Of a DNA stretch of 64,000 bases, positions 18,484 through 44,058 are shown in pieces. This DNA is from Fermentibacter sp963718745 [NCBI: Candidatus Fermentibacterota bacterium] (lineage in GTDB: Bacteria > Fermentibacterota > Fermentibacteria > Fermentibacterales): assembly GCA_963718745.1 (NCBI GenBank), contig OY970370.1:744001-808000 (forward strand), read 5' to 3'. The number at the start of each line of letters is the position of its first letter. The stretch's first letter is position 1. The notes under the pieces were generated by a model. That model was not told where the DNA came from. It searched no databases and saw only the letters and a list, made by a program, of their open reading frames with translations. Made by a program: the position numbers and the translations under genes.

Positions 18484-20370
18484 TCATTCCCTGACGTCCG
18501 ACGATACGGCGGATCTCAGCTCTCCGTTCCTCTGCGTGTATCCCAGTCCGTCCAGGACACCGGCCCAGAGGACCGCCAGCCGTCTCGGCACGCCCATGAT
18601 CTCCCTCATCTCCCCGAGGCGGAACTCCTCCGCCCCGAATGCGCCTGAAAGTACATCCCTGGCCCTGCGGGCAACATCGGGAGTCGTGACAATACCCTTC
18701 TCGAGCTCTATGACAAGACCCCTCTCGAGGAGAGCCTCTGCGCCGCCCTGATCCATCCCGGCGCAATCGAAGCCTGCGAAGCCCGCCCTGTCGATCTCCG
18801 ACAGCATCAGAGACAATGTGTTGTTCAATTCATCAGATAGCTCGGAGGGATGGGTCGAAAGAGCCATCCTGTCCCCATCTCTCCTGGTGGCCCCGGTTTC
18901 GGCCAGACGCGCAAGGACGCCCTTCACGAACCACTGCGGGAACTCGGGAAACAGCCTGCCGATCCCTGACGTGGGCATGCCCCTGCTGAGGGGTCTCTCC
19001 GCGTGGTAGGTCCTGAGTGCCGACAGGAGCGTCCCGGCGGACCGGTCGAACTGCTCCTGGAGTACTAGCCTCTCGCCGGAGCCGTCCTTCATGAAGAGGA
19101 CATCTCCGCTCCCGACGAGCGACAGGGCTGCTTCGTTCATCTCAGCCGCGGTCCTGCCCACCTCGCGCGAAGTCTCCGGGATGGAGAGGCCGGCGGTCGG
19201 TCTCGCTCTGAGCCGCTCCAGGAGGAAGCCACCGATGTCGCCATCCGCGAGCATCCCGACCCTCCTCAGCCTGTCCTCCCTGTTCTTCAGCCTCACCTTC
19301 GCCGTTCCGGACTCCAGTATCTGCCCGCCACCCATCGTGGTCACGGGGGAGAAACGCCTTATCACGAACCTGTCCCCGGGGATCGACACCACAGGTTCCT
19401 CGAGCTGGAAGTGGACGAAACCGGACGATCCCTGCTCGAGATCCGAGCCTTCCATCGGGACTGCCCGAGCCATGACCTCGGCCGTTCCGCAGTGGAACCT
19501 GACCCTCTGTCTCATCTCGAGGGGGAACCCAGGGAGAAGAGTGAGTTCGGTATCCAGTGCGGAGGATGCCTCCATCCAGCCGGGAGTTGCGAGACTGCTG
19601 CCCCTCCGGGCCTCCTCCCGCTCCAGCCCCACCAGGTTCAGGGCGACCCTGTCCCCTGCGGTGCCGGCCCCGTGGGTCCTTCCCTCGTTCACGCGCATCT
19701 CTCTGACCCGGAATGTCTTGCCGCCGGGAAGGAGCTCCAGGCTATCCCCCTGGTTGACGCTTCCGGATAGCACCGTGCCCGCGACTATCGAACCGTGGCC
19801 CTGGAGGGTGAACACCCTGTCTATGGCGAGCCTGAACCTGGGGTCGGGCTGGGACCTGCCGTAACTCCCCGCCATCTCCACGAGCGCGGAGCGGAGCTCC
19901 TCCATCCCGGCTCCGGTGACAGAGGAAACCCTGTAGACCGGGCTGCCCGCATACGGTCCGGCGGAGAGAAGATCCTCTATCTCGGCTTCCGCGAGGTCCT
20001 GGATGTCCTGATCGACCATGTCGCACTTGGTGAGGGCTACGATGCCCTTCCCGACTCCCAGGAGCCGCAGGATGTCCAGGTGCTCCCTGGTCTGGGGCAT
20101 CACCCCCTCGTCGGCCGCCACCACGAGCATGAAGAAATCCACGGTGGCGACGCCGGCGACCATCTGCCTGACGAACTTCTCATGCCCCGGGACGTCGATG
20201 AATGCGAGCACTCCGCCGTCCGGAAGGGGCATGAAGACATAGCCCAGCTCGATCGTTATACCGCGCAGCTTCTCCTCTTCGAGCCTGTCCGGGTCGACAC
20301 CGGTGAGCCAGCGCATGAGCGAACTCTTGCCATGATCCACATGTCCCGCGGTACCGGCAACTACTCCCAC
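18484..20370 (-). CDS. selB: Selenocysteine-specific elongation factor SelB
   Basis: Delivers Sec-tRNA(Sec) to UGA codons by binding the SECIS hairpin in mRNA. I choose the GTG start at 20370 (VGVVAGTAGHVDHGKSS) because GGGAGG precedes it; it overlaps selA by 10 nt and gives 628 aa, normal for SelB. The GTPase domain has GHVDHGKSSL, GITIELGY, DVPGHEKFVRQM and TKCD. The beta-barrel domains follow, and then C-terminal winged-helix repeats (PTSGIGRLFPEFPQ, then LGEMREIMGVPRRLAVLW), which bind SECIS. An open frame continues upstream inside selA without coding support. Confidence 0.95.
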   Translation of the reverse strand: MGVVAGTAGHVDHGKSSLMRWLTGVDPDRLEEEKLRGITIELGYVFMPLPDGGVLAFIDVPGHEKFVRQMVAGVATVDFFMLVVAADEGVMPQTREHLDILRLLGVGKGIVALTKCDMVDQDIQDLAEAEIEDLLSAGPYAGSPVYRVSSVTGAGMEELRSALVEMAGSYGRSQPDPRFRLAIDRVFTLQGHGSIVAGTVLSGSVNQGDSLELLPGGKTFRVREMRVNEGRTHGAGTAGDRVALNLVGLEREEARRGSSLATPGWMEASSALDTELTLLPGFPLEMRQRVRFHCGTAEVMARAVPMEGSDLEQGSSGFVHFQLEEPVVSIPGDRFVIRRFSPVTTMGGGQILESGTAKVRLKNREDRLRRVGMLADGDIGGFLLERLRARPTAGLSIPETSREVGRTAAEMNEAALSLVGSGDVLFMKDGSGERLVLQEQFDRSAGTLLSALRTYHAERPLSRGMPTSGIGRLFPEFPQWFVKGVLARLAETGATRRDGDRMALSTHPSELSDELNNTLSLMLSEIDRAGFAGFDCAGMDQGGAEALLERGLVIELEKGIVTTPDVARRARDVLSGAFGAEEFRLGEMREIMGVPRRLAVLWAGVLDGLGYTQRNGELRSAVSSDVRE

Positions 20371-21734
20371 AGGCCTCCCGCCGTCTCGTTGAGCAATCCG
20401 GCAAGGGTCCCGATCTCCTCCGGGAATACGGTTCTCAGATCGAGATAGAGCCTGCCGTTCTCGAGCCTGCCGGCCACGGCCGGGCGGCACCTGCGGAGCG
20501 CTCCGGCCAGGGCGCCGCAGTCGGGGGCGTCGATGACCAGGCCCCATGACGGGATCGCGGAGTCGGGAAGCGCGCCGCTGCCGACGAAGCTGCTCATCGC
20601 GGTGGCGGAGACGCTGCACGTCGCAGGAAGATCGAGCAGGTCGAGCAGGGATTGAGCCGAGTCGCGGAGGCTCTCCAGGTCGGCCGAGAGCATCGTGTAC
20701 ACGGGGTGGTTCGCCCTGATGTAGTCAGACCCCTCCAGGAACAGCTTGAGGGTTGCCTCCAATGCTGCCATGGTCAGCTTGCACACCCGCAGCGCACGGG
20801 CGAGCGGATGCTTCCTGATGATGCCTACAAGCTCCCTGCTGCCTGCTATGATGCCCGACTGCGGGCCGCCGATCAGCTTGTCCCCCGAACTGGTCACAAC
20901 GGCCGCACCGGACCTGATGCTCTCCGGAACGGTGGGTTCGGAGGGCAGGCCGAACGATGTGAGGTCGACCAGGGAACCGGCGCCCAGATCGTCCATGACG
21001 GGCAGTCCGGACTCGCGGCCCAGGGCTACGAGGTCTTCGAGCGCCACCTCGGAGGAGAAACCCCTTATCCTGTAATTGGATGGATGGACCCTCAGGAGGA
21101 GGGCCGTCTGCGGATTGACCGCCGACCGGTAATCACGGAGGTGCGTGCGGTTGGTGCATCCCACCTCGCGCATGATCGCACCGCTCTGCCTCATCACGTC
21201 CGGTATGCGGAACGAACCGCCGATCTCCACGAGCTGTCCCCTGGATACAACGACCTCCCTGCCGGCCGCGAGGGCAGTCAGCACGAGGAGGGTCGCTCCG
21301 GCATTGTTGTTCACGACCGTTGCCGCATCCGCTCCGGTGAGCTCGCAGATGAGACTCTCCACATGAGCATCCCTCTCGCCCCTGGCTCCGGCTTCCCAGT
21401 CCCACTGGAGGCTGCAGAAGCCCCGCGCAGCGGAGGCGAGCGCCTCGATCGCGGAAGGAGGCAGGGTCGCCCTTCCGAATGCCGTGTGCAACACTATCCC
21501 GGTGGCGTTTATCACGGGTCCGAGGCTGGTCCGGGAGAGAGCAAGGGCCTCCTCGACAGCCTTCTCCCCGGGATCCCCGGGGTCCTTCCCCAGCGCTATG
21601 GCGGTCCGGGCGCGTTCGAGGGCGGACCGGGCCGCACGTCTGGCAAGTGCGTGAGGGACTCCGGGAAGGCGGTCCGAGATCAGCGCCAGCAGATCGTTGA
21701 CCGCCGGGAGGCTCCTGAAGTCCCCTTCAGCCAT
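20361..21734 (-). CDS. selA: L-seryl-tRNA(Sec) selenium transferase SelA
   Basis: PLP enzyme that converts Ser-tRNA(Sec) to Sec-tRNA(Sec) using selenophosphate. It is about 457 aa from the ATG at 21734 (MAEGDFRSLP); a GTG at 21746 is an alternative start. The N-terminal domain (RLPGVPHALARRAAR), NATGIVLHTAFGRATL, VNNNAGATLLVL and the PLP lysine in SSGDKLIGGPQSG are all in place. It begins 4 nt after rnfB. A complete pathway also needs selD and selC, which are not in this window. Confidence 0.95.
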   Translation of the reverse strand: MAEGDFRSLPAVNDLLALISDRLPGVPHALARRAARSALERARTAIALGKDPGDPGEKAVEEALALSRTSLGPVINATGIVLHTAFGRATLPPSAIEALASAARGFCSLQWDWEAGARGERDAHVESLICELTGADAATVVNNNAGATLLVLTALAAGREVVVSRGQLVEIGGSFRIPDVMRQSGAIMREVGCTNRTHLRDYRSAVNPQTALLLRVHPSNYRIRGFSSEVALEDLVALGRESGLPVMDDLGAGSLVDLTSFGLPSEPTVPESIRSGAAVVTSSGDKLIGGPQSGIIAGSRELVGIIRKHPLARALRVCKLTMAALEATLKLFLEGSDYIRANHPVYTMLSADLESLRDSAQSLLDLLDLPATCSVSATAMSSFVGSGALPDSAIPSWGLVIDAPDCGALAGALRRCRPAVAGRLENGRLYLDLRTVFPEEIGTLAGLLNETAGGLWE

Positions 21735-21738
21735 TCCT

Positions 21739-22788
21739 CTACACACCTTCCCTGGTGTATGACAGGGCTCCGAGCATCCGGATCGACTTCTTCGGGCACT
21801 TCGGAGCGCAGAGGCCGCATCCGACGCACTTGTCTATGTTGACCGAGTGCTTTTCCTTGAGTTCTCCGGAGATGGCGTTCACCGGGCAAAGCTTTGCACA
21901 TATCGTGCACCCGATGCACCCGTTGTCGATGAAGGCCTTCGGCCTGGCCGGGGCTCTGTCCACTATGGCCCCCGTGGGGCACACCGTCGCGCACAGCCCG
22001 CAGTTGATGCATTTCTCCGGGTCGATTGAAGCCAGGTTGTCGGCTACGGTGATGGCGTTGACCGGGCACGCCTTCTCGCACTTGCCGCACGCGATGCAGG
22101 CGACCGCGCACGCCTTCCGGGCGGTCGGCCCCCTGTCCTTGTTGCTGCAGGCCACGGTGACCTGCCTGTTCTCCGGCCAGAGCGAGATTATCCTCTTGGG
22201 GCAGGCCTTCGTGCATTTGCCGCAGCCGGTGCACCTGGCGGGGTCGACGACAGGCACTCCGTTGTCGCCAATCCGTATCGCACCGAAGGGGCACGACTTC
22301 ACGCAGTCACCCATACCCATGCAGCCGAACCTGCACGACCTGTCCCCGCCCATGACCATCATCGCGGAAGCGCAGGAATGCGGTCCGTCGTAGACGAATG
22401 CCCTGCCGGCCGAGTGTCCTCCGTTGCAGCGGACCATGGCGATCTTCCTGACGGAATCCTGTATCTCCACGCCCATCGCGCCTGCCAGCGCGGAAACGGT
22501 CGCAGGATTGGCCGCGACGCATGACGAGGGCTGGGTCTCGCCCCTTGCCAGGGCGCCGGCAAAGCCGCTGCATCCGGGGAAGCCGCAGCCGCCGCAGTTG
22601 GCTCCCGGCAGGAGCGACTCGAGCTTTTCGACGAGGGGATCCTTCTGCACGGCGAGCTTGCGCGCCGCGATGGCCAGGCCGAGTCCCAGGACCAGGCCCG
22701 TTGCCCCGAGCAGGACTGCCGGATAGAGCACGGCCTCGGTCGAGGCGGTCTGGGAGATGGAGGCAAGCAGCATCAACGCGCCCTGCAT
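21739..22788 (-). CDS. rnfB: Rnf electron transport complex subunit RnfB
   Basis: Iron-sulfur subunit that takes electrons from ferredoxin into the Rnf complex. The 349 aa protein has an N-terminal TM helix (AVLLGATGLVLGLGLAIAARKL) and the Fe-S domain LLPGANCGGCGFPGCSGFA. It then carries a chain of ferredoxin-type CxxCxxCxxxC motifs (CTGCGKCTKACP, CIACGKCEKACP, CINCGLCATVCP, CIGCTICAKLCP, CVGCGLCAPKCP) plus an extra cluster around CMGMGDCVKSCP. It is longer than proteobacterial RnfB and resembles the multi-cluster acetogen/Thermotoga type. Confidence 0.95.
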   Translation of the reverse strand: MQGALMLLASISQTASTEAVLYPAVLLGATGLVLGLGLAIAARKLAVQKDPLVEKLESLLPGANCGGCGFPGCSGFAGALARGETQPSSCVAANPATVSALAGAMGVEIQDSVRKIAMVRCNGGHSAGRAFVYDGPHSCASAMMVMGGDRSCRFGCMGMGDCVKSCPFGAIRIGDNGVPVVDPARCTGCGKCTKACPKRIISLWPENRQVTVACSNKDRGPTARKACAVACIACGKCEKACPVNAITVADNLASIDPEKCINCGLCATVCPTGAIVDRAPARPKAFIDNGCIGCTICAKLCPVNAISGELKEKHSVNIDKCVGCGLCAPKCPKKSIRMLGALSYTREGV

Positions 22789-28461: not shown

Positions 28462-28508
28462 AATCACTGCAGACCATGCTTGAGACCTGGACCATGAAAA
28501 GCTCATAA

Positions 28509-28529: not shown

Positions 28530-28539
28530 CGGACTGCCG

Positions 28540-30194: not shown

Positions 30195-30514
30195 GATGGC
30201 CGGGCAATCTCTGTATCATCATTATTATCATGACTATAGATCCTCCCTTACGGGAGATGTCTTCCGGGCTCGTCTGGAGATCGACAAGGTCTGGAGATCA
30301 GTAGACGAGGGGTCTGAACCGCTGGAGGTCAGGGATCCCCAGAGGACCACCATATAGATCTAGAGATCCATCTGGTAGAGGATATCTGGGCGGGATCATA
30401 CTCCCCGGGCAATCGAGGGTGGGCGCGACGTCCGACCACCCTATGCCGATTTCCTCTCGATCGAAGCCAATCCCCGTATCCAGGCAAGGCAGGAGTTCGA
30501 ACTAACTTCAATCC

Positions 30515-30699
30515 GGCGTGCCAGATCTCCAGTTCCGCGAGGCGGAACTGGTTCGGTAGCACGACAGCACGGTTCCCGAAGGGAACCTGCGAGAGTGCGT
30601 GCAGGATCTGGATCTTCACCAAGATCTGGATCTACACCATTAACAGGGGCACTGGTCCAGTTAGCAGCACAGCGCTCTCACTCTCAGCCTGTAGTTCGG
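30515..30699 (+). repeat. 184-bp direct repeat, copy 2
   Basis: Starts GGCGTGCCAGATCTCC like the tRNA-Arg tail and matches 28278-28461 with a few substitutions and single-base indels (for example TTCGGTAGC versus TTCGTAGC). Only the last 9 bases of the tRNA are duplicated, so it is not a second tRNA. Confidence 0.88.
30531..30595 (+). repeat. Two-hairpin repeat, copy D
   Basis: AGTTCCGC-gag-GCGGAACT, the linker ggttcggtagcacgacagca, GGTTCCC-gaa-GGGAACC, and the tail TGCGAGAG. The loops differ from copy C while the stems are kept. Confidence 0.78.
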
Positions 30700-31071
30700 A
30701 TCTCCACCATTAACTGGGGCACACCTCTCGTTATCCAAGGGAGTGAACCGCCCCGGTGTTCCGGATTCTCGACATTCATGAGTACGGGGTCGATGCACGG
30801 GCGGGTGCGTTTCGAGCAGCAGGGGGTTCATGCACGCTGCCGGGGCGGCATATCCAGTATCCAGCCATACTGCGCGCGAATGGGGTTGCGAGCATATTTC
30901 CGAGTCGAAAGAGCATAATCGCGTTATCTACAGGCCGGGGACAACCACTGGGATTCCTGGTGCATACATCTACTCACGCATTTCTAGTTCATCTATTTGC
31001 GATCGTCGCACCGCAATCTCCGTCAAGATGTTGGAGCACATGGAGATGTCGATGCATCTGAAGTATCTGAA

Positions 31072-31109
31072 ACCAGGAACCGGCCTAGGAACCGGCCTAC
31101 GGAACCGGC
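31072..31109. repeat. Three tandem 13-bp repeats
   Basis: Three successive copies of GGAACCGGCCTA with one variable base, immediately after the stop of the PQQ-propeller gene. The core AACCGGCCTA is partly palindromic. Confidence 0.7.
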
Positions 31110-32813: not shown

Positions 32814-33024
32814 GTTCCGCTCCTTCGGCCGGAAACCCGGTTGTCCATGAGCGGAGGCGGCCATATCAGCAGCTCTCCTGGCGCCTCCTTCGAGACAGAA
32901 CCAACGGAATGCTGATTGAGTATGGCCCTAGACTCCGAACAAGTCCACCATACAAGAGAGCGATCATTGATTTCCGCAGATCAGGATGCGCTGAGATGTT
33001 CAGAAGAAGACTACGCAACGATTA

Positions 33025-33054
33025 AGGGGGGCACCCGATCGTGTATGCCCCCCT
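33025..33054 (-). terminator. Hairpin after the LamG-like secreted gene
   Basis: AGGGGGGCA and TGCCCCCCT form a 9-bp GC-rich stem with a 12-nt loop, 14 nt downstream of the stop at 33068. The tail TTAATCG is only weakly T-rich, so this is a plausible but not classical terminator. Confidence 0.5.
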
Positions 33055-33067
33055 CAACACGACTCTG

Positions 33068-34387: not shown

Positions 34388-34544
34388 GTCTCCTCCAGAC
34401 TGGATTGAGCTATTCTGTCTGTAACATCGAACCGGCTTCCTCCATGGATTGCACACACCCTAAGTTGCATGCGCACAAAGCCTCTATTGACATCTCCATC
34501 GCCAATACCTGCGCAGATTCGGCAGCTTGTATCTCTGAAGAGCA
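34388..34544. other. Spacer between the secreted-protein and signalling genes
   Basis: About 157 bases that are less GC-rich than the surroundings. No gene or strong promoter could be assigned. Confidence 0.4.
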
Positions 34545-35105
34545 TCAGGGCAACCACCGGGAGCCAGAGGCCAGGCTATCAAGCGACGAGTGGTGGAATG
34601 CCATCAGAGCAGCAGCTGCCGCGAGAGTAGGCAGGGTTGCGGCAAGAACCGTCGCCAGGCAGCCCTTCCGGGCAGGTCCCGAACGGGATGCGCTGCCACG
34701 ACCCCTTTGGGGAACAGCGTCGTTAATCACGGACTCCCTGGCAGGCCTGGCGCCTCTCTCACGAACCACCGGCCCGTGTGGGAACACCGTGCTTCCCGGA
34801 CAACCGTTCTCGCAATCCTCGGCGCGATGCCTGAAAGGATCCGGCATGAGCCACTTGAGGATCGCCGGATCGTCCCAGTCGAGAGTCCACTGCTTCGAGA
34901 GCTGGATGCTGTCCCCGGGCTGGATTCGCTGCAGGCCCCGAACCTCGATCCCGTTCAGATAGGTGTGGTTGGCCGACTCGAGATCCTCGAGATACAGGCG
35001 AATCCCCTCCCGGATCAGCCTGGCATGGAACCGCGAGATGTAGCCGCTGTCGGCGACGATGTCATTGTCGCGATCAGAACCGATGGTCAGTGTCTCGCCC
35101 GGCAT
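34545..35105 (-). CDS. FHA-domain protein with C-terminal membrane anchor
   Basis: 186 aa. The N-terminal half is a forkhead-associated phosphothreonine-binding domain: LTIGSDRDNDIVADSGYISRFHARL holds the conserved G-S/R, S-R-x-H core, and NHTYLNGIEV the N-G motif. A basic linker is followed by a TM helix near the C-terminus (CLATVLAATLPTLAAAAALMAF). The start is tight against the domain: the ATG at 35105 follows GGAGAGGAG but omits the first predicted strand. It is the last gene of a group with TIR and TPR-SLOG proteins, suggesting a phospho-dependent adaptor. Confidence 0.8.
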   Translation of the reverse strand: MPGETLTIGSDRDNDIVADSGYISRFHARLIREGIRLYLEDLESANHTYLNGIEVRGLQRIQPGDSIQLSKQWTLDWDDPAILKWLMPDPFRHRAEDCENGCPGSTVFPHGPVVRERGARPARESVINDAVPQRGRGSASRSGPARKGCLATVLAATLPTLAAAAALMAFHHSSLDSLASGSRWLP

Positions 35106-35400
35106 CTCCAGCGTCTCCTCTCCGGGGCGCTTCCGCTGTGTGAATCCACCGGCACCGCTCCTTCCGTGATCCCCGTGGTGAGGTCCATGCGGCCCACCCC
35201 CGTATAGTCTTTGTTAGCAATGAACTAAGATCAGAAGCGAGGGAGGGCAAGGCCATGAATATCATGGTTGTTGCCTGTATTTGTGAATCAGATCAGCACG
35301 TCTTAGATATCACTGAGTTTCGTGATACTTTGTGCATAGTTGTGGACCGATGATCCCGCGCCATCCAGCCGGATGAAGGAAACCGGGCGAGAAGGGGGTG
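35106..35400. other. Intergenic region between the FHA and TPR-SLOG genes
   Basis: 295 bases, moderately AT-rich around 35220-35350. No gene, RNA or convincing hairpin terminator was seen; it probably holds the promoter of the FHA gene. Confidence 0.4.
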
Positions 35401-37230
35401 CTACAGGTTCGAACCGGAGGGATGGATCTGGAAGAGTCTCAGCCCACGGCCCTGATCAGTCGCGAATACTCCTCTGTACTCGAGCCTGAGCTCCTCGCAT
35501 CCCCGTATTGAGAGGAATGACTTCACCTGGAGGCTGCAGAAGAAGCCCTTCGGGATGGTCCCGCTCCCGGCTGCAGCAGCCGCCTCCTCGAGCTCCCTGC
35601 AGTAGCAGCCTGCGCTCCTGCCGGACCGGGATGTCCGGAGCGCCAGACCCGCGTGTACGACCATCGACTCCATCTGCAAACCGGACATCCTCTCGCAGCA
35701 GGTCGCGAGGAACCTGCCCATGTCCTGCGGCGGACTCGCAGTAAAGCATATCATCCCAGGCATCAGGCAGCTCTGATCTATCCGGAGCGACTCGTAACGA
35801 CCAATCTCGTCGAGTGCTGTCGAGATGTCTGACAAAACCCGCGCCCCCTCCTCGTCGGAGATGCATCCTTCATAAACAGTCACCACGCCTGTCAGGGAGA
35901 CGAAAGGCGATTCGAAGCCGCCCCCGGAGGTCTCTTCCTCCTCGTGGGAGGCAACAACTCTCTTTGCCCCGGCAGGAGGGGGGATCCTCAAGGGTTTCAC
36001 ACCCAGTTCACGCAGTCTCGAAACGAGATAGGAGGTTCCTCCCCCCAGAGGCGCATCCCTCCCGTCCCAGACGACAATGGGCGATAGTTCTGCGTCGTAC
36101 TGCCTCACAACATCCATGGAAAGTCCCAGCATGAAATCCGAACAGAAACGGTACAGTGCGCTCGATTCGGATGAAAGACGCGAGATCGAAGCGATCTCCA
36201 CCCTGTCCGCTCCGTCCATCACCGCATCGAACCGTTCAGCCCAGACGGGTCCGGCGTTTTCATTGATCCTGCTCCTGAAGAGCTCGGCCGGGTATGGCAG
36301 GACGACCGTCGAGGATCTCCCAAGCTCCATCATGCACTCGTGGAACAGGATGTCCGATCCGTCAGCTCCGGATGCGATGCCGATATCGATTCCGAGGTCC
36401 GTTATCGCCTTCCTTAGCTTCTGTTTCAGAGCCCCGGTCGCATCGCGCGGGAACCTCGGCATATCGCTCCTGGCCCTGTCCAGCCTGTGCCCCGCGAAGA
36501 CCGACACTCTGAGAGAGGGGATCGAGCAGAGGACTTCGGTTACGATCGTCCCCTCAGAACCCATTGCCTCGAGCAGCAGCCTCGCATTGCTCCTGGTGGA
36601 TGCCACCCATCCGAAGTTACCTCCGAGATGGCTGCGGGCCGTCCGGAACCATGCCATGGCCGAATCGTAGTCCTTCCTGACCAGAAATGCCTCGCCGAGA
36701 GAGGCCGGAACCCAGAAGACGCTGGCAGTTCCGTTCTGCTCGTACTCCGACCAGCACATGTCTATGACTTCACCCGCAAGCCTGTCTGCGAGCGCGGTCT
36801 GGCCGTCGATCCTCGCCAGTGTAGCGGCATTCACAGAGGACCAGTAGCCTCCACCACATCCTGCGCTCTCCTGATAACTCCGCAGAGACATTCTCAGGAG
36901 GTCTGCCGCACCTGCAGCTCTCCCTCCGCAGGCAGCAAGCCACTTCCGCTTATAGAACCCGCCCAGCAGCGCGTGATACTCCGGATCGGCGATCGGAACC
37001 CCGCCTGAGGCCCACTCGAGCATCTGAACCGCTTCGTCGTTCATGCCGAGCAGGGAGGAGCATCTGGCCAGCAGCTTGGCCTTCTCGAGCAGCGCATGCC
37101 CCCGGTCCGCCTCGATCCTGCGGCACAGGTCGAACGCCCTCAGGTACTCGCCCCTGTCCAGGAGCAGCCTGACCGAGCCGGTCTCCGGATCTACGACGGA
37201 GGAGGACCGGAATTCACTCAGTATGGTCAC
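35401..37230 (-). CDS. TPR-SLOG (TPR-S-like) signalling protein with degenerate cyclase-like C-terminus
   Basis: About 609 aa. The first ~230 residues are helical repeats of TPR/TRAFs-binding (DUF4071) type. Residues about 240-345 (RVSVFAGHRLDRA, LGIDIGIASGADGSDILFHECMMEL, VVLPYPAELFR) have the Rossmann-like G-x-x-x-G-S/A-D pattern of the SLOG superfamily, whose members are proposed to bind or process nucleotide ligands in conflict systems. The last ~160 residues (SLTGVVTVYEG, MVVHAGLALRTS, CRELEEAAAAAGSGTIP) resemble a class III cyclase fold without the metal-binding aspartates. The start is uncertain: GTG at 37230 has GAGG upstream; TTG at 37281 is the alternative. The family name is inference. 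Confidence 0.6.
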   Translation of the reverse strand: MTILSEFRSSSVVDPETGSVRLLLDRGEYLRAFDLCRRIEADRGHALLEKAKLLARCSSLLGMNDEAVQMLEWASGGVPIADPEYHALLGGFYKRKWLAACGGRAAGAADLLRMSLRSYQESAGCGGGYWSSVNAATLARIDGQTALADRLAGEVIDMCWSEYEQNGTASVFWVPASLGEAFLVRKDYDSAMAWFRTARSHLGGNFGWVASTRSNARLLLEAMGSEGTIVTEVLCSIPSLRVSVFAGHRLDRARSDMPRFPRDATGALKQKLRKAITDLGIDIGIASGADGSDILFHECMMELGRSSTVVLPYPAELFRSRINENAGPVWAERFDAVMDGADRVEIASISRLSSESSALYRFCSDFMLGLSMDVVRQYDAELSPIVVWDGRDAPLGGGTSYLVSRLRELGVKPLRIPPPAGAKRVVASHEEEETSGGGFESPFVSLTGVVTVYEGCISDEEGARVLSDISTALDEIGRYESLRIDQSCLMPGMICFTASPPQDMGRFLATCCERMSGLQMESMVVHAGLALRTSRSGRSAGCYCRELEEAAAAAGSGTIPKGFFCSLQVKSFLSIRGCEELRLEYRGVFATDQGRGLRLFQIHPSGSNL

Positions 37231-37305
37231 TGACGCCTCGATTCCATGATCGGGATGGTGCCGGAGAGCCTTGTAGGACAACGTTGAACGAGGATGGCAT
37301 ACCCC

Positions 37306-38037
37306 TCAGTCGAGGGTTCTGACCAGCAGGTTGTCGTGGAAGACGCGGCCCCATGAACCGGAGCGGTTGCCGAGGACGACCGAGAGGGCCCCGATGTCCC
37401 GGGTAAGAGTACTCTCGCTGTGGAACAGCAGAAGGTCGTCTACGAAGAAGGAGACAGTCCTGTCCATTTCGACCACGATTCTGTACCTGTGCCAGGAATC
37501 GAGGTAGTCGTTGAAGTGGAGGCGCTCGCACTCGTCTTTCTCACCGTCCGGAGAATAGACGCTGGTGACCATCTGACCCTGGAGATGCGGACAGGACCAG
37601 TTCGCCTCCCCGGCGTAGTTGTAGCTGAGGCGGGCGACCATGGAGGCGATTCCGTCCTGTCCGTAGACGGCCGTCTCTGCTTCGATCAGCCCGATCGTCC
37701 CCGCTATCCAGGCACCTCTCTGGTTGGATGTGATGTACATGTCGCACTCCACTACGAGACCTTCCGAACAGTCCCAGGAGCCTCGCGACATGGCTCCACT
37801 GTCGTACATCGAGTCGCCGTTGTTGTCGAAGCTCGGTGCGGGAAGGCCGGTCGAATCCGAAAGAATGGGTAGAGGCTCCCCGAACAGGATCCATCCCTCC
37901 CGGAGCGGCCCCGAGAAGTCGTCATCGAAGAGCACGCCTGCTTCGCCGACTGGGGACGTACAGGCCAGAATGGCGATTGTCAGAGGAAATCGCACTGAGT
38001 GAACCACTCTCGATCTCACTGGATCACCATCTCCCAT
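37306..38037 (-). CDS. Secreted LamG/concanavalin-like domain protein
   Basis: 243 aa with a signal peptide (FPLTIAILACTSPVGEAG) followed by a single beta-sandwich domain (FDDDFSGPLREGWILFGE, VVECDMYITSNQRGAWIAG, DSWHRYRIVVEMDRTVSFFVDDLLLF, FHDNLLVRTLD). It overlaps the end of the TIR gene by 14 nt. Its fold looks like the C-terminal domain of that TIR protein, so the two probably arose by duplication or act on related ligands. No sorting tail is present. Confidence 0.72.
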   Translation of the reverse strand: MGDGDPVRSRVVHSVRFPLTIAILACTSPVGEAGVLFDDDFSGPLREGWILFGEPLPILSDSTGLPAPSFDNNGDSMYDSGAMSRGSWDCSEGLVVECDMYITSNQRGAWIAGTIGLIEAETAVYGQDGIASMVARLSYNYAGEANWSCPHLQGQMVTSVYSPDGEKDECERLHFNDYLDSWHRYRIVVEMDRTVSFFVDDLLLFHSESTLTRDIGALSVVLGNRSGSWGRVFHDNLLVRTLD

Positions 38038-40282
38038 GGAACAGCCTTATGTCGTCCAGCCTGTGGGGTGAGGAGTCCGAGTTACCGTTCAGGACTATCC
38101 GTACTGAATCGGGCAGGTTGCCTTCCAGTGGGGCCTCCATGAACAGCCGGCCTCCGACGTGGAAACGGATCGTTCCACTGCAGAGCTCTATCGCGAGCGG
38201 AATGCCGGCAGCATATCCGATCCATCCGGAGTCGTCCGCAACCTTCTCGAAGAGGGAGTCACCCAGGAAGCATCGAGCCCGGATCGAACGCGACAGATCC
38301 CCCGCCCCGCCGGTGTAGATCCACTGAAGATCGGCCGACGGAGTCGAGGCGGGATCCCTCAGATAGGAGTCGGCATCCTCGCTCGTGAGCCCTATCGAGA
38401 CACAGTTCGAACCGGAGACCGAGGGCGCGTCGTTCACGTAGACCTCGGCAGAGAGGCGAACCCCTGGGGAGGCTCTGAAACCCGCCCTGCTGACGAGCGG
38501 GACGCAGTTCAGGTCGACCGCCGCATCGCCCGTAAGTGAGTCGGTCAGGATGGTCGGGGAATAATTCCTGTTGCTGCCCATGAGCCAGATGCCCTGGTCG
38601 AGAAAACCCCGCTGCCAATCCTCCCGGAAAATGTCGATGCCGGTCCGGATCTCTTCGGAGAAGCTTCCGTCCTCCGACAGTTCGATGATCCATGCGTCCG
38701 GGTCGCCGTCGCGGCTGACTGATCCCGCAGCGAGAAACCCACCACCGGGCAGCGCTGCGAGGCTCGACACGTATTCGCTTCCACCGAGGTCGATCACGGT
38801 CTCGTTCCTGAGCCTGCCTTCATCGTCCAGAAGAAGGATCCAGCCGTCCGGGGATCCGTCTCCGAAGGACATTGTGCTTCCGCCTATGAGGATCGATCCA
38901 TCCTGCAGCACGGTCACAGCCGACGCCCCGTCCCAGAGGTCTCCCCCGAAAGTACTCTCCCAGTTCCGGACGAGTCCGGGAGAGATCACCATGACGACCA
39001 GGTCTCCGTTCCCGGCGACATAGCTGTTGCTCGTGAGACAGAGGACGAGATCTCCCTCATCGGTCAGAGTCGCGCATCCGGCCTGTGTCCGGTTGTCTCC
39101 GATCACGATCTTGCGAGTTTCGGATCCTCCGGCAGGAGTGTACGAAACCCCTACCGCGCGAGACTCCGATTCCTGGTACACGTTGAAGATCCCCGCGGAA
39201 CTGTCGGTGAGGTAGGCATACGATTCATGGCAGCCCGGAATCGTGTCCCAGGTCATGGCCCCGTCACCGGGATGCAGCTCGACCAGATGGATCGCGTCAC
39301 CCGCCCCCCTGTTCCGCGACCGGAGTGTGAAGGCCAGGCGGACCAGCCCGTCCGGTCCCTGCTCTATGCTTCCGAAGACCGGCTGTACCGCGCCAGGCCA
39401 CTCGATCCTCAGGAGCCTGTTCCAAGCCTGGGAACCCATGGAGTCGAGCCTGGAGGCCTCGACCCAGAATCCGGTATGGTCGAAATCCGCATACTGCCCG
39501 TAACCTACGATCACCCCTCCGTCCGGGGTTGAGACGAGCCTCGGTTCGCACTCCCCGGCAAGCGAGTCCGACCAGGACCAGAGCAGCCGGCCCTTCTCGT
39601 CGAATCTCGCCACCCATGCCTCGCTCCAGAAACCCGAGTCCCACGTGCCGGATACGAAGAAGCGTCCGTTCTCGCAGACAATTACATCGGTCGCATAATC
39701 CCACGAGTCGGTTCCCCCGACGATGAGGTTGATCATCTCGGGTGAACCGCCCCCTCCCCTGTCCATCATGATTCCGACTGTGGCGGGGATCGCCATGGCA
39801 AGAGCGGATCCGGCCGCAATCCAGCGCCAGGAACGGGAGCGTCCCTTCGGGCCGCCGGTTACTGCTTCAGGTCCCGCGCCGCCCGTGTGCACAGCCAGGG
39901 CGGCGGAGAGAATGTCGGCCAGCAGTCGCTCGCCTCCAGAACCGCTCTCGTCCAGCCACTGGTGCGAACTGGTGAAGTACCTGATCCCCTTGCACACCTC
40001 GGTGTCGTCCAGACGGACCGGGATTATCGGGATCTTCAGATTGGTCGCTATGTCCAGCTCGTTCCGAACCTGCCAGGATGCGTTCGAGTGTTCGCTGAAG
40101 AGGAGGATTAGAGCCCGGCTGGAAGAGATGGCGTTGTATATTGTCTCGGCCCAGTCTGAACCCGGAGGGATGTCCCGTCCAGAGGACCAGCATCGGACTC
40201 CTCCGGCCTCCAGATGACTGACGACCTTCTCGACGAGGACCGAGTCCCGGCTGGAGTGGCTGATGAAGAAGAGGTCACCCAA
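38024..40282 (-). CDS. TIR domain - transmembrane - extracytoplasmic propeller/LamG protein
   Basis: 752 aa from the TTG at 40282, chosen because AAGGTG precedes it and the product begins exactly as TIR proteins do (LGDLFFISHSSRDS). An ATG 69 nt upstream has no ribosome-binding site. The TIR domain covers residues about 1-125; the helix SNASWQVRNELDIA carries the glutamate (about residue 75) aligned with the catalytic Glu of TIR NADases. A TM helix follows (WRWIAAGSALAMAIPATVGIMM). The outer part has repeats of GGTDSWDYATDVIV and DGGVIVGYGQY type, then a C-terminal LamG-like domain. The topology suggests outside-in signalling. Neighbours encode FHA and TPR-SLOG proteins. Confidence 0.82.
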   Translation of the reverse strand: MGDLFFISHSSRDSVLVEKVVSHLEAGGVRCWSSGRDIPPGSDWAETIYNAISSSRALILLFSEHSNASWQVRNELDIATNLKIPIIPVRLDDTEVCKGIRYFTSSHQWLDESGSGGERLLADILSAALAVHTGGAGPEAVTGGPKGRSRSWRWIAAGSALAMAIPATVGIMMDRGGGGSPEMINLIVGGTDSWDYATDVIVCENGRFFVSGTWDSGFWSEAWVARFDEKGRLLWSWSDSLAGECEPRLVSTPDGGVIVGYGQYADFDHTGFWVEASRLDSMGSQAWNRLLRIEWPGAVQPVFGSIEQGPDGLVRLAFTLRSRNRGAGDAIHLVELHPGDGAMTWDTIPGCHESYAYLTDSSAGIFNVYQESESRAVGVSYTPAGGSETRKIVIGDNRTQAGCATLTDEGDLVLCLTSNSYVAGNGDLVVMVISPGLVRNWESTFGGDLWDGASAVTVLQDGSILIGGSTMSFGDGSPDGWILLLDDEGRLRNETVIDLGGSEYVSSLAALPGGGFLAAGSVSRDGDPDAWIIELSEDGSFSEEIRTGIDIFREDWQRGFLDQGIWLMGSNRNYSPTILTDSLTGDAAVDLNCVPLVSRAGFRASPGVRLSAEVYVNDAPSVSGSNCVSIGLTSEDADSYLRDPASTPSADLQWIYTGGAGDLSRSIRARCFLGDSLFEKVADDSGWIGYAAGIPLAIELCSGTIRFHVGGRLFMEAPLEGNLPDSVRIVLNGNSDSSPHRLDDIRLFHGRW

Positions 40283-40468
40283 GAGACACCTTCGTTCGGA
40301 AGCCGGGATGACTATACCTGCTGCAGGAGTGCGACATGCCTTCATCTGCAAGGTGCGATCGCACTAGACATGGCCTGCCGGATGCAATCGGTAACCGCCA
40401 CCAGACAGAGGTGACGGATGGATCCCGGACCGGTTCCCGGACAGCCCTCTTTCCTCCAAACAACCCTT

Positions 40469-41347
40469 TCAGCGGAAGAACCTGTCCAGCGGGCTCTGGA
40501 TGCGGAGAGGGCTTCGCCTGCGAACCAGCGAAAGATACGGCGCGAGCATCGAATCGGTCTTCAGACCGAGAAGCTCCCGGACCAGACCCTTCTCGATCCC
40601 GTCCTCCATGAGGTGCACTGCAAAGGAGAACCTCAGATCCGAGGGTGACGCAGGCCGGCGGATTCCGGCCGCCCGCAGGGCATCATGGAAAGCTCGATGA
40701 ACTGTCTTACCAGAGATTTTCGACATGCTCCGCCTCCCCTGGAGGAGGTACGGGTTCCTTTCCGAGCGCGCTTCGAGGAGGCTCGCTATCTCCCGGGCGG
40801 CGGCGGCGGAGATGATCGTGTCCCTGAGGAATCCTCCGTTCGAGTCGTTCACGTGGATGACAGGTGTCTCGAGATCGACTCCGCCGGCCAGCAGGCAGAT
40901 GGCTTCCTCCACGGTGAGCCCGGACGAATAGACCAGCATCAGGGCCGTCCTGTACCTGGCATCAGGAATGCTCCTCAGTATCCCGGCTATCTCTCCCCTC
41001 GTGAAGACCCGGTGGAGCGGGCTCCTCCCGGGGAGCCTGATCGGCGACGGGAGCGGATCCGGCCTGCCGAGCACCCTGACGTAGAGGAACCTGATCGCAC
41101 TCCTGGCCTGACGCATCCCGGCGAAGGACTTCACCGCCGGATAGGTGCGTTCGAGATAACCCTCCATCTCACCTGTCGAGAGTGACCCTGCACGCTCTCC
41201 GAAGACGGCGCCGAGGCGTTTCAAATGGGACATGTAAGCTGACGATGTCGAGCCGCCCGCGCCGGTCTCCCGGAGACTATCCTCCGCCAGCTCGAGCAAT
41301 CGCTGCATCCCGCCCACGTCCGTCTGCCGCACCCGATGCTCACGCAT
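40469..41347 (-). CDS. Tyrosine recombinase/integrase family protein with degenerate active site
   Basis: About 292 aa from the ATG at 41347; upstream and internal starts are possible. It has the SAM-like N-terminal core-binding domain (SSAYMSHLKRLGAVFGE, FAGMRQARSAIRFLYVRVL) and the XerC/D-type catalytic fold. Family positions have changed: the first Arg (usually G-L-R) is Thr in YSSGLTVEEAICL, and the H-x-L-R-H motif is SDLRFSFAVHLM, keeping only the Arg. The usual G-H before the nucleophile is LKTDSML, while a candidate Tyr remains in LAPYLSL. It is probably inactive for strand cleavage, or a DNA-binding regulator. Confidence 0.75.
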   Translation of the reverse strand: MREHRVRQTDVGGMQRLLELAEDSLRETGAGGSTSSAYMSHLKRLGAVFGERAGSLSTGEMEGYLERTYPAVKSFAGMRQARSAIRFLYVRVLGRPDPLPSPIRLPGRSPLHRVFTRGEIAGILRSIPDARYRTALMLVYSSGLTVEEAICLLAGGVDLETPVIHVNDSNGGFLRDTIISAAAAREIASLLEARSERNPYLLQGRRSMSKISGKTVHRAFHDALRAAGIRRPASPSDLRFSFAVHLMEDGIEKGLVRELLGLKTDSMLAPYLSLVRRRSPLRIQSPLDRFFR

Positions 41348-41476
41348 GCCGGTATTTAGCGATGGCCGCCGCAGGCGGCAAGCTTGGACGGTTGGCTGCA
41401 AATGAATGACCGGGCAGTGGACGCCTTGAATGACCTGAGGGTGAATCAGGACCAGATGTTGGAACCGATCCTGGCT

Positions 41477-41499
41477 GCCCGGGGTGGTACACCCGGGCG
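41477..41499 (-). terminator. Hairpin after the tandem UGA-containing genes
   Basis: GCCCGGG and CCCGGGC (mirror-complementary, about 8-nt loop) start 3 nt beyond the TAA of the second gene. There is no T tract, so this is a structural candidate only. Confidence 0.45.
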
Positions 41500-41501
41500 G
41501 G

Positions 41502-42143
41502 TTACTCCGACAGGACCGACTTTATCTCTGCGAAGGTTGCGCCCTCGAGAGAAGATTCCCCTGACAGCATGAGCATCGGGATGATGCTCGTAAGGCTGCC
41601 CGAGGACGCATCGTACTGCCCCGATGCGCACCTCATCGCCTCCGTGTTCCACTGCCATGTGTAGACGCACTCCGTCCCCAGCTCCTCGCCGCCCGACCAC
41701 ATGATTTCGACGACCAGGTTGTGTGTCCCGCCGTACCAGTAGGGCGTTGCGAGCTGGAAGTCGAACCAGGTGTCCGGATCGACGCTGAGGTACAGGCTGT
41801 CGCTGCTGTAGACCAGGGTTCGCGTCCCCGACATGAAGTTCGCGTCGAATACGGGCGTCAGGGCGTCAAGGTCGGTGAGGGAGAACCAGATCTCGAAATC
41901 CTGGAATACGGAGGGGGCGGATGTGGAGCCGGAGCTGTGCCTCTTCAGGCTAATGACGTCGATCTCGAACGCACCGTCGATCTCCTCCTGCAGCACTACC
42001 GCCTGGTAGCGCAGGCTCTCTATTCAAGAGCAGCAGAGGGGTTCGCCGGAGGAGAGCTCCGCAGAACCGATCACGAGGGAGTCGGCGCCGGCCGAGGCTG
42101 CCATCATGAATAGGACGAGGGCCAGCCTTGTGTTGATCTTCAT
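41502..42143 (-). CDS. Putative secreted selenoprotein 2 (in-frame UGA at codon 40)
   Basis: The full frame from the ATG at 42143 (GGAGGGGAATGAGGCG upstream, 4 nt after the previous stop) reads a signal peptide (RLALVLFMMAASAGA), then VIGSAELSSGEPLCCS, UGA, IESLRYQAVVL and 163 further residues to TAA. Read through, it is 213 aa, with UGA forming C37-x-x-U40. The body is beta-rich with ATPYWYGGTHNLVVEIMW, TWQWNTEAMR and a final SLEGATFAEIKSVL, all shared with the upstream paralogue. An 8-bp hairpin begins 11 nt after the UGA. The family is not one I recognise. If UGA were a stop, no exported product would be made. Confidence 0.75.
41993..42012 (-). promoter_or_regulatory. SECIS-like hairpin of putative selenoprotein 2
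   Basis: On the mRNA strand GCGCTACC-AGGC-GGTAGTGC (one G-U pair), starting 11 nt downstream of the in-frame UGA (42026-42024). Same place, stem and near-identical loop as in the paralogue. Confidence 0.6.
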
Positions 42144-42147
42144 CGCC

Positions 42148-42774
42148 TCATTCCCCTCCTATGGTGAGGGTCTTGATGCCGGCGAAGGTCGTCCCGTCCA
42201 GAGAGAGGGTTCCGGTGATCTGTAGTTCCGACATCTGCGTCGAGAGAACCCCCGTCGCCGAGCCGAGGCTGGTCGCCTTGACCGATCTGGCCGCACCCGT
42301 GTTCCACTTCCAGGTGTAGAAGCTGTAGTTGGTGTCGGCTGAAGCCCACTGCACCTCGATGAGCAGGTTGTCCTGGCCGTTGTACCAGTAGGGAGTCTGG
42401 AGGGTCACCGGCTCCCATTCGCCGGGCGAGGCGCTCAGATCCAGCTGTGCCGTCTCGAACACCAGCGTCTTGGAGCCAGGGATCCAGTTGTTCTCGAAGT
42501 TGGAGGACAGCTCGTCCGATGCGCAGAGGCCCATGTAGATCTTCGCAGTGTAGTAGTGGCCCTGGTCGTCACCGGCTGCGGCACGCTGCCAGGCGATCGA
42601 GGAGATGTCCATGGCGTTTCCGATCTCGCTGTCGAGCGCTACCACCTGGTAGCGCATCTGGGCGCTTCAGGAACCGCACCAGGGATCGCTCGAAGGCGCC
42701 TCCTGGCTCCCGATGACTACCGTCGATGCAGCGGCAGGAAGAGCCGCCAGCAGAATTGCGAGAACCTTCATCAT
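42148..42774 (-). CDS. Putative secreted selenoprotein 1 (in-frame UGA at codon 36)
   Basis: The frame from the ATG at 42774 (AAGGAG six bases upstream) encodes a signal peptide (KVLAILLAALPAAAS), then TVVIGSQEAPSSDPWCGS, UGA, SAQMRYQVVALDSEIG and the rest, 208 aa in all. The UGA gives C33-G-S-U36, a W-C-G-x-U sequence reminiscent of the thioredoxin W-C-G-P-C active site. The C-terminal body matches its downstream paralogue (TPYWYNGQDNLLIEVQW, TWKWNTGAARS, GTLSLDGTTFAGIKTL). Other UGA codons in the window act as stops, so global code change is unlikely. selA and selB lie about 20 kb away on the same strand. Confidence 0.78.
42636..42655 (-). promoter_or_regulatory. SECIS-like hairpin of putative selenoprotein 1
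   Basis: On the mRNA strand a perfect 8-bp stem GCGCTACC-AGGT-GGTAGCGC begins 11 nt after the UGA at 42669-42667. The loop AGGU matches the apical G-U-containing loop of the E. coli fdhF SECIS, which from memory is also about 11 nt from its UGA. Confidence 0.65.
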
Positions 42775-42846: not shown

Positions 42847-44058
42847 TCAAGGGAGCCCCTGGAGGGATCCCTCCTCCCGACGCAAATATTCCGCAAGTTG
42901 TGCAAATTGCCAAGAATCGTTGTAGAGCTGGGCGGAGATGCGCAGGAGGCGCAGGCGTGCGGACCGGATGTATGAGACCGGGGCCTCGATGCGGCATTCC
43001 TCCAGGAGCCTTCGCTGGAGCGGGTCCATCCATTCCCAGTCGGGTCTGGGCGGGTCGGGGGGATCGATCCAGGGGAGCTCGAACGAGGCCATGGCCCCGA
43101 CCATGGAGTCCGGACACGGGGGCTCGACGCCCAGAGCGTCGCAGACGAGACTCCGCGCGGAGAGAACCATGGATCGGTTCGCCTCCATGACCGCCTCGAG
43201 CCCGCCGGGGAGGAGCCCCAAGAGGAAACGGCCGGCTTTGGATACGCACAGGGCGGCCGTCGGGTCGGGCGTCCCGTTCCACTGGAACTCGATCCTGAAC
43301 GGGGACTGGCGGCCGTCGAAGTCTCCCTGCACGTGACTCGTGGCGAGCGGATGGATCCTGTCCTGCATGTCCGGCCTGACGTAGAGCATCGCGCAGACCT
43401 TCGGCGAGCAGAGCCACTTGTGGAAATTGCCGGTGTAGAAGGCGGCCCCCATGGCCTTCATGTCCAGGGGGACCATGCCGGGACCGTGAGCCCCGTCGAC
43501 CAGGGTCTCGACCCCCCTGTTCCTCAGTTCGGCCACAAGGGGAGTCGGATCCGCCACGAAGCCGGTGGCGCTCGTGATGTGATCGACGACAACAAGCCTC
43601 GTCGCAGGGGTGACCCGGGAGAGGAAGGCATCGGCGATGTCGCCGGGACAGGTCACCGGGAACGGCATCGGGACCACGGTGCACCTCGCTCCAGCCCTCT
43701 CGCAGTGGAACCTGCAGGCGTTCAGCGTGGCGAAGTACTCATGGCTGCCGACAAGTACCTCGTCCCCGGGCCGGAGCCCGAAGGAGGCGAGGACCGTGTT
43801 GACTCCGTGCGTTGCGTTCTGGACGAGGGCGACCGTGCCGGGCTGTGCTTTGACAAGATCTTCGACATAGGCGTATTCGGCCCACAGGAGCTCCGGCAGC
43901 CGCCTGACGAGGAACTCCATCGGCCTGGCCTCGAGGTCCCGGATAAGCTCCTCACGGTATTCGAGGACTTCCCCGGGGCATGCTCCGAAGGAGCCGTGGT
44001 TCAGATAGACGGTTTCCGGATCGAGAGCCCAGTGAGACGAGAACCGGTTCGGCGCCAT
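42847..44058 (-). CDS. Class V aminotransferase family protein (isopenicillin-N-epimerase-like)
   Basis: 403 aa PLP enzyme of the cysteine desulfurase/selenocysteine lyase/isopenicillin N epimerase branch. The N-terminal VYLNHGSFGACPGEVLEY is the hallmark of the epimerase-like group. TSATG-type DHITSATGFVADP, DGAHGPGM and the Schiff-base lysine in YTGNFHKWLCSPK are present. The exact substrate cannot be told from sequence; these proteins are often named only aminotransferase class V. It lies 14 nt downstream of the first PEBP gene. Confidence 0.88.
   Translation of the reverse strand: MAPNRFSSHWALDPETVYLNHGSFGACPGEVLEYREELIRDLEARPMEFLVRRLPELLWAEYAYVEDLVKAQPGTVALVQNATHGVNTVLASFGLRPGDEVLVGSHEYFATLNACRFHCERAGARCTVVPMPFPVTCPGDIADAFLSRVTPATRLVVVDHITSATGFVADPTPLVAELRNRGVETLVDGAHGPGMVPLDMKAMGAAFYTGNFHKWLCSPKVCAMLYVRPDMQDRIHPLATSHVQGDFDGRQSPFRIEFQWNGTPDPTAALCVSKAGRFLLGLLPGGLEAVMEANRSMVLSARSLVCDALGVEPPCPDSMVGAMASFELPWIDPPDPPRPDWEWMDPLQRRLLEECRIEAPVSYIRSARLRLLRISAQLYNDSWQFAQLAEYLRREEGSLQGLP

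What the first reader, a model, noticed from the sequence alone, without database searches (positions are those of the whole stretch)
41502..42774. Two tandem exported paralogues each read through an in-frame UGA: a likely undescribed selenoprotein pair
Both genes have a ribosome-binding site, ATG, signal peptide and about 15-20 mature residues, then UGA, then a continuous coding frame of more than 160 codons. The two proteins share sequence on both sides of the UGA (VIGS before; LRYQ or MRYQ after). The UGA falls in C-C-S-U in one and C-G-S-U in the other. A chance nonsense mutation would not hit the same codon in two paralogues that differ elsewhere, and both downstream parts remain under clear constraint. 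Sequence directly shows the frames; selenocysteine is inferred.
Basis: partly seen in the sequence, partly recalled or inferred. Interest (0 to 1): 0.93.

Follow-up and report, generated by a model that had tools for sequence, protein, structure and literature searches.

The report
Exported selenocysteine protein pair
Two neighbouring bacterial genes carry a 'stop' codon that is almost certainly read as selenocysteine, and they belong to a large, apparently uncatalogued family of exported selenium proteins found through most of one uncultured bacterial phylum, where they probably do redox chemistry outside the cytoplasm.

Summary
Observation confirmed; the selenoprotein reading is strongly supported and the finding is larger than reported. 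Genes A (42148-42774, -) and B (41502-42143, -) each have an in-frame UGA in a C-x-x-U motif after a signal-like N-terminus. SelA and SelB lie in the same window, about 20 kb away. The closest relatives found are Fermentibacteria. In 42 genomes of that phylum, 40 have homologues. Of 146 homologues read whose motif is visible (window pair included), 133 have UGA in the same short loop and 13 have Cys there instead; none lacks both, and no in-frame UGA occurs in 23,238 downstream residues. All 133 have a Cys within 10 residues of the UGA. A hairpin right after the UGA shows compensatory changes and is largely broken in Cys versions. selC, SelA and SelB are widespread in the phylum. No credible Pfam, NCBIfam or PDB sequence match; not in the passages read of a 2026 catalogue. 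Predicted fold: lectin-like jelly roll. Function is inferred: an extracytoplasmic selenol/thiol redox protein; 36 of 142 homologues have a gene for an exported Cys-repeat, membrane 4Fe-4S-type protein within 2 kb downstream.

The parts
42148..42774 (-). Gene A: exported protein, 208 codons including one in-frame UGA (motif W-C-G-S-U), terminated by a second UGA
   Evidence: falls in a starred set of 6 rows on the quick tree
42667..42669 (-). Sec-UGA codon of gene A
   Evidence: same column in orthologues
42636..42655 (-). SECIS-type hairpin of gene A (8-bp stem, apical loop AGGU), starting at the 12th nt after the UGA
41502..42143 (-). Gene B: exported paralogue, 213 codons including one in-frame UGA (motif L-C-C-S-U), starting 4 bases after gene A's stop codon
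   Evidence: falls in another starred set of 6 rows
42024..42026 (-). Sec-UGA codon of gene B
   Evidence: same column in orthologues
41993..42012 (-). SECIS-type hairpin of gene B (inner stem, apical loop AGGC)
20361..21746 (-). selA, L-seryl-tRNA(Sec) selenium transferase
   Evidence: TIGR00474 502.8 bits, cut-off 267.9
18484..20370 (-). selB, selenocysteine-specific elongation factor (start approximate)
   Evidence: TIGR00475 308.2 bits, cut-off 242.25
42847..44058 (-). Class-V PLP enzyme (cysteine desulfurase-like, all NCBIfam scores below cut-off) upstream of the pair; a homologue lies about 4.6 kb upstream of the pair in L001
   Evidence: substrate unknown, link to selenium not shown

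Best explanation
Shown by sequence: two tandem genes of a large exported protein family in Fermentibacteria in which an in-frame UGA is conserved as part of a Cys/Sec motif, with a conserved hairpin just after the UGA, and with Sec machinery in the window and in the phylum. Inferred with high confidence (this is what the stated confidence refers to): SelB with Sec-tRNA decodes the UGA as selenocysteine by reading that hairpin. Inferred with moderate confidence (about 0.6): the protein is exported as a jelly-roll domain whose N-terminal loop holds a reversible thiol/selenol (selenenylsulfide) pair, so it works as an extracytoplasmic redox protein. Inferred with lower confidence (about 0.4): in the members that have it nearby, a membrane 4Fe-4S-type protein passes electrons through its exported Cys repeats to the C-x-x-U site. 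The window pair lacks that neighbour and presumably draws on another reductant.
For: UGA in the loop in 133 of 146 homologues read and Cys there in the other 13; 0 in-frame UGA in 23,238 downstream residues. All 133 have a Cys within 10 residues of the UGA. Hairpin: mean z -1.80 in 133 Sec genes against -0.10 in 13 Cys genes (Mann-Whitney p 8e-6, related sequences counted as independent) and -0.06 to -0.37 at five other offsets in the Sec genes; the six inner pairs are 96-100% formed in 95 + 28 unique Sec sequences; covariation score 0.343 against 0.220 in shuffles, 0 of 500 as high. SelA and SelB in the window; selC over the cut-off in 36, selB in 35 and selA in 35 of 42 phylum genomes; G018 has no match to any of the three nor to the family at the thresholds used. 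45 of 129 Sec-type genes end in UGA, so UGA is not globally reassigned. Hydrophobic N-terminus by a crude count in 142 of 146. Fer4_5-type neighbour within 2 kb downstream of 36 of 142 members, 29 genomes.
Against: No measurement of selenium. selC was not seen for the window's own genome, which is not held. G020 has four UGA members but no selA, selB or selC match at the thresholds used, probably an incomplete assembly. Several hairpin pairs hardly vary and overlap coding constraint; two of the five shuffle measures are weaker (7 and 46 of 500 shuffles as high), one slid control (+2) has as many cells changed on both sides (34). 10 of the 13 Cys genes are one clade. No sequence similarity to a known oxidoreductase and a lectin-like predicted fold, so the redox role rests on motif and neighbours. 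The Fer4_5 neighbour is absent from the window and was not seen in 106 of 142 members, many with only about 400 nt of flank. Motif spacing varies (94 C-x-x-U, 22 C-U, 11 C-x-U, 6 other), which also fits metal binding.
Confidence: 0.92

Rival explanations
1. The UGA is read through but not as selenocysteine: the code is reassigned, or a suppressor or cysteine-charged opal tRNA inserts another amino acid.
For: Frames are open across the UGA; Cys replaces the UGA residue in 13 homologues, which a Cys-inserting UGA tRNA would also explain.
Against: 45 of 129 Sec-type genes, and gene A itself, end in UGA. SelA and SelB are encoded in the window and tRNA-SeC with anticodon TCA was found in 3 of 3 relatives' loci. 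The hairpin is conserved with compensatory changes in UGA genes and largely broken in Cys genes.
Confidence: 0.03
2. The UGAs are nonsense mutations or sequencing errors and the genes are pseudogenes.
For: Standard translation ends the gene at the UGA; one homologue of 133 (L100) has a further stop upstream of its loop and may be broken.
Against: The codon recurs in 133 homologues in 38 phylum genomes and the window, with dN below dS downstream in 7 of 7 pairs measured and no second in-frame UGA inside the matched domain.
Confidence: 0.005
3. Real selenoproteins, but the Cys/Sec loop binds a metal or metalloid (for example mercury, arsenic or copper) for sequestration or sensing instead of catalysing redox reactions.
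For: C-U, C-x-U and C-x-x-U spacings all occur. Orthologous pairs in L001, L003 and L197 lie near a transporter, a weakly DsbD-like protein and an exported thioredoxin, and L197 also near an arsenate-reductase-like frame; together they look like an arsenic operon (the arsenic labels are recalled).
Against: Those genes have no match in the window at E 1e-4. Part of the family has a membrane 4Fe-4S-type gene nearby, and 5 of 6 Cys-type neighbourhoods fetched contain an Omp28-like protein with a C-x-x-C motif, which points to electron transfer.
Confidence: 0.25
4. Real selenoproteins whose Sec/Cys pair is mainly structural or adhesive: a lectin-like surface protein using an Se-S link for stability or covalent attachment.
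For: The predicted fold resembles jelly rolls including carbohydrate-binding ones (VIA-align Z 12.0 to an acetyl-xylan esterase domain, 3.0 A over 153 residues), and relatives without Sec lie mostly in long open frames in other genomes.
Against: A structural link would not need selenium and its spacing should be fixed, yet spacing varies. The site lies in a low-confidence loop of the model, so its exposure is unproved.
Confidence: 0.15

Closest known systems
Glycine reductase selenoprotein A (GrdA, PF04723)
   Same: C-x-x-U motif (table passage of PMC13188914); named as a selenoprotein lacking Cys homologues (passage of PMC12013277), comparable to the Sec excess here
   Different: No Pfam hit here; GrdA is not an exported jelly-roll protein (recalled)
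TonB-dependent receptor, FCYXU motif type (NF049945)
   Same: C-x-x-U (table passage of PMC13188914) in a cell-envelope protein (location recalled)
   Different: No NCBIfam match; the proteins here are about 210 aa with a predicted jelly roll, not a receptor barrel
SaoC, KCU-star and other selenoproteins with C-U motifs (for example NF040734, NF033934; table passage)
   Same: Adjacent Cys-Sec, seen here in 22 of 133 members
   Different: No NCBIfam match for the 8 sequences scanned, all of the C-x-x-U type; the C-U members were not scanned
Unnamed jelly-roll domains in long open frames of other genomes (for example G182, 18 matches)
   Same: Distant relatives by profile
   Different: No UGA inside the match and no Cys/Sec pair where the loop is aligned; mostly parts of long frames, not stand-alone

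Membership tests
Bacterial selenoprotein | In-frame UGA conserved at one place across species, with flanking frames under constraint | tested here: met
   133 of 146 homologues read, same loop; dN below dS in 7 of 7 pairs
Bacterial selenoprotein | Homologues with Cys at the Sec position | tested here: met
   13 of 146, all C-x-x-C
Bacterial selenoprotein | SECIS hairpin immediately downstream of the UGA with a G near the start of the apical loop (consensus recalled) | tested here: met
   second loop base G in all 95 unique sequences of one spacing class and all 28 of the other
Bacterial selenoprotein | SelA and SelB in the same genome | tested here: met
   window 18484-21746
Bacterial selenoprotein | tRNA-Sec (selC) in the same genome | tested here: inconclusive
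   not in the window; own genome not held; over the cut-off in 36 of 42 phylum genomes
Bacterial selenoprotein | Selenium measured in the protein | not testable with these tools
   needs labelling or mass spectrometry
A selenoprotein family already in NCBIfam or Pfam | Match above the curated cut-off | tested here: not met
   8 pair-type proteins scanned (Sec given as Cys): best E 0.074 in NCBIfam and 0.13 in Pfam, none credible; other family branches were not scanned
Thioredoxin-like oxidoreductases | Thioredoxin fold around the C-x-x-U site | tested here: inconclusive
   model is a beta sandwich with a low-confidence loop at the motif; the fold lists cannot exclude families
Carbohydrate-binding modules (jelly roll) | Same fold | tested here: inconclusive
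   VIA-align Z 12.0 for A, close to unrelated jelly rolls such as a phage baseplate protein at 11.7; 8.3 for B, near background; Foldseek best E 1.7e-3
Carbohydrate-binding modules (jelly roll) | Sugar binding | not tested
   no binding data

The most novel reading that the evidence does not exclude
Fermentibacteria use a previously unknown extracytoplasmic redox system: a multigene family of exported jelly-roll selenoproteins whose Cys/Sec loops (C-x-x-U, C-x-U, C-U) serve as electron carriers or reductases, part of it fed by a dedicated, single-copy membrane protein that couples 4Fe-4S centres to exported cysteine repeats.
Probability: 0.4. Interest if true: 0.9.

Novelty: new variant of a known kind. 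Interest (0 to 1): 0.82.

Why it matters
Nearly all selenoenzymes are said to have far more abundant Cys versions (passage of PMC13188914); here Sec outnumbers Cys 133 to 13 among the homologues read. One family with as many as 9 matches per genome and Sec members in 38 of 42 genomes of a phylum, on a predicted fold not usually linked to selenium, with varying Cys/Sec spacing, gives a natural series for asking why Sec is kept and what spacing does. Many such genes are probably cut short in public annotations (inference; annotations were not examined). The nearby membrane 4Fe-4S-type gene makes a concrete electron-transfer hypothesis testable.

Tried and rejected
A first scan of genome contigs with gene B alone found no relatives. 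Pfam, NCBIfam and PDB sequence searches gave nothing credible. Foldseek gave no match at E <= 0.001; no thioredoxin-fold chain was among the 50 rows shown for model A or for model B, which excludes nothing. Global reassignment of UGA was rejected because 45 of 129 Sec-type genes end in UGA. A third in-frame UGA in the window (37306-37308) was considered: the 48 nt after it fold only to -7.0 kcal/mol without a compact hairpin, so I treat it as an ordinary stop; its homologues were not checked. Searches for selenoprotein with Fermentibacteria, and selenocysteine with Hyd24-12 or with Fermentibacter, returned 0 papers; in broader searches I saw listings only, and no listed title or abstract start described this family. 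Deng et al. 2026 (groundwater genomes, cited in PMC13188914) was not seen; it was not listed. A paper on selenoprotein neighbourhoods (PMC12013261) is not held. Either might mention related sequences.

Rows not counted: the match column sums to 182, but the call lists only the best; I fetched all the listed ones except four (G002:C14, G028:C8, G002:C3, G035:C46), and none of the unlisted. Of 152 profile hits, 3 were cut by a contig end before the motif and 3 were C-terminal pieces (the script labelled one of these 'Cys' and two 'other'); they were left out, giving 146. One Sec-type member (L100, G034) has a stop codon upstream of its loop; it is among the 133 but was left out of the alignments. 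The tree is a quick one with warnings about long branches.

Full report
WHAT IS THERE. Two genes lie in tandem on the minus strand. Gene A (42148-42774) has an in-frame UGA at codon 36 (42667-42669) and ends with a second UGA; gene B (41502-42143) has an in-frame UGA at codon 40 (42024-42026) and ends with UAA. AAGGAG lies upstream of A, and B starts 4 bases after A's stop codon, so they look like one transcription unit. Read through, they are 35% identical over 203 residues, E 2e-42, with the UGA in the same column.

WHOSE GENOME. No whole genome is held for the window. A genome-contig scan found three relatives, all Fermentibacteria (Hyd24-12): L001 (UBA5074), L002 (UBA6080) and L003 (RA.bin127). 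Each carries the tandem pair, and all 8 proteins (window included) have UGA at the same column, in W-C-G-S-U (copy A) or L-C-C-S-U / L-C-V-S-U (copy B).

FAMILY. A profile of these 8 (A3) matches 40 of 42 genomes of the phylum, up to 9 matches per genome. I fetched all but four of the listed matches and none of the unlisted ones. Among 152 profile hits, 146 have a readable motif: 133 with UGA in the N-terminal loop and 13 with Cys there. The other 6 are 3 contig-edge truncations and 3 C-terminal pieces. No in-frame UGA occurs in 23,238 residues downstream of the loop. The 133 are C-x-x-U (94), C-U (22), C-x-U (11) and other spacings (6); the UGA lies 7 or 8 residues before the same anchor residue (102 and 31 members), so in part of the family it is shifted by one residue against the strict column, which holds UGA in 98 rows. 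All 133 have a Cys within 10 residues of the UGA. They come from 38 phylum genomes plus the window. Copies A and B fall in separate starred sets of 6 rows, so the duplication predates these species and both copies kept the UGA. Cys forms need 3 changes on this quick tree, of which starred branches force only one.

SECIS. The 45 nt after the UGA fold better than dinucleotide shuffles in Sec genes (mean z -1.80, n 133) but not in Cys genes (mean z -0.10, n 13; p 8e-6, which treats related sequences as independent). Five other offsets give -0.06 to -0.37 in the Sec genes; in the Cys genes they give +0.45 to -0.98. The usual inner stem is CUACC or CUAUC facing GGUAG or GAUAG, closed by AGGU. The six inner pairs are formed in 96-100% of 95 + 28 unique Sec sequences, the two outer pairs in 25-59%; mean pairing over all eight is 0.89 and 0.81, against 0.47 in 11 unique Cys sequences, where one inner pair is formed in 0 of 11 and others in up to 9 of 11. 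Several inner pairs hardly vary; the informative ones are mainly 13-28 and 17-24, and 15-26 in the second spacing class. On 71 sequences chosen to be under 75% identical (of 72 selected, L100 left out), 91.0% of cells pair (84.7% in shuffles), 34 cells change on both sides (9.7) and the covariation score is 0.343 (0.220), each with 0 of 500 shuffles as high; two further measures are weaker (7 and 46 of 500). Sliding the partner lowers pairing to 19-74%; one slide (+2) also has 34 cells changed on both sides, but only 31.5% paired. The stem overlaps the codons for R/H-Y-Q-V-V, so part of its conservation may be protein; the compensatory changes and the break in Cys genes argue for RNA function. 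10 of the 13 Cys genes are one clade.

MACHINERY. The window encodes selA (20361-21746, TIGR00474, 502.8 bits) and selB (18484-20370, TIGR00475, 308.2 bits), both over their cut-offs, just after rnf genes. In the phylum selC is over the cut-off in 36 of 42 genomes, selB in 35 and selA in 35 (37 at a looser threshold). ARAGORN gives tRNA-SeC with anticodon TCA in 3 of 3 loci tested. Of 38 genomes with Sec members, 37 have at least one of the three genes; G020 has none at these thresholds. G018 has neither the family nor the machinery; G026 has the machinery but no family match. UGA is still a stop: 45 of 129 Sec-type genes end in UGA.

BEYOND THE PHYLUM. Among 290 relatives searched (248 outside the 42), 8 outside the phylum match at E <= 1e-6. 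Of their 27 matches only the one in G162 has a UGA (motif P-F-C-G-G-U); the sequence after it folds to -11.1 kcal/mol but not as the family hairpin. The others lie mostly in long open frames and show no Cys/Sec pair where the loop is aligned; G182 alone has 18. selC is over the cut-off in 6 of these 8 genomes.

FOLD AND CONTEXT. The model of A is a beta sandwich (pLDDT 73, pTM 0.75); B gives a weaker model (64, 0.66). Closest solved folds are jelly rolls: for A the domain of an acetyl-xylan esterase (7tog, Z 12.0, 3.0 A over 153 residues), a phage baseplate protein (11.7) and others; for B Z 8.3, near background. The motif lies in a low-confidence loop. Of 142 members with downstream sequence, 36, in 29 genomes and all C-x-x-U, have within 2 kb on the same strand an exported protein with repeated C-P-L-G...C...C...C-D-N units and a membrane part; the one scanned matches Fer4_5 (PF12801). 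In the 11 loci with full coordinates it is the next gene or follows the tandem partner. Absence elsewhere is weakly tested, as many loci had about 400 nt of flank. The label is scattered on the tree (7 changes). A profile of that protein matches 37 of 42 genomes, once each at E <= 1e-60. Five of 6 Cys-type neighbourhoods fetched, and one Sec-type, contain an Omp28-like exported protein (below the Pfam cut-off in the one scanned); the five with an intact N-terminus carry CGPC, CGYC or CSYC. Pair orthologues in L001, L003 and L197 lie near a transporter, a weakly DsbD-like protein and an exported thioredoxin. None of these has a match in the window at E 1e-4. Some members lie near selD-like, yedF-like (labels partly recalled) and selAB genes.

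HOW IT LIKELY WORKS. Decoding as Sec is supported as far as sequence can. The constant Cys partner, export and neighbours point to a selenol/thiol redox pair outside the cytoplasm; its substrate is unknown. Metal or metalloid binding and a structural or adhesive role remain possible.

KNOWN OR NEW. No credible Pfam, NCBIfam or PDB sequence match (8 pair-type sequences only). The selenoprotein table in a 2026 review (PMC13188914; passages seen, not the whole text) lists, in what I saw, no exported jelly-roll family of this kind. deep-Sep (PMC12013277; passages) reports other families. Searches with the phylum names gave 0 papers. I rate it a new selenoprotein family, hence a new variant of a known kind.

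Noticed in passing
window 27868-41500: In L001 the tRNA stretch and the rnf genes begin within about 0.6 kb after the pair; in the window about 13 kb separates them, with a tyrosine recombinase-like gene (40469-41401) at the pair's end. It looks like a genomic island.
   Followed up: partly
window 18484-27592: rnf genes followed directly by selA and selB; in G001 the pair, rnf and selAB lie on one contig in the same order.
   Followed up: partly
window 37306-37308: Another in-frame UGA joining two open frames (35401-38037); no compact hairpin follows, so probably an ordinary stop.
   Followed up: partly
L189, L191, L192, L194, L196, L198, L200, L203, L206, L209, L211: Exported Cys-repeat protein with a membrane Fer4_5-type part downstream of family members; its profile matches 37 of 42 phylum genomes once each.
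   Followed up: yes
L156 (G162): A UGA-bearing family member in a genome outside the phylum set, with selC present; horizontal transfer and contamination not distinguished.
   Followed up: partly
window 38024-40351: The N-terminus looks like a TIR domain (recalled from the sequence, not scanned).
   Followed up: no
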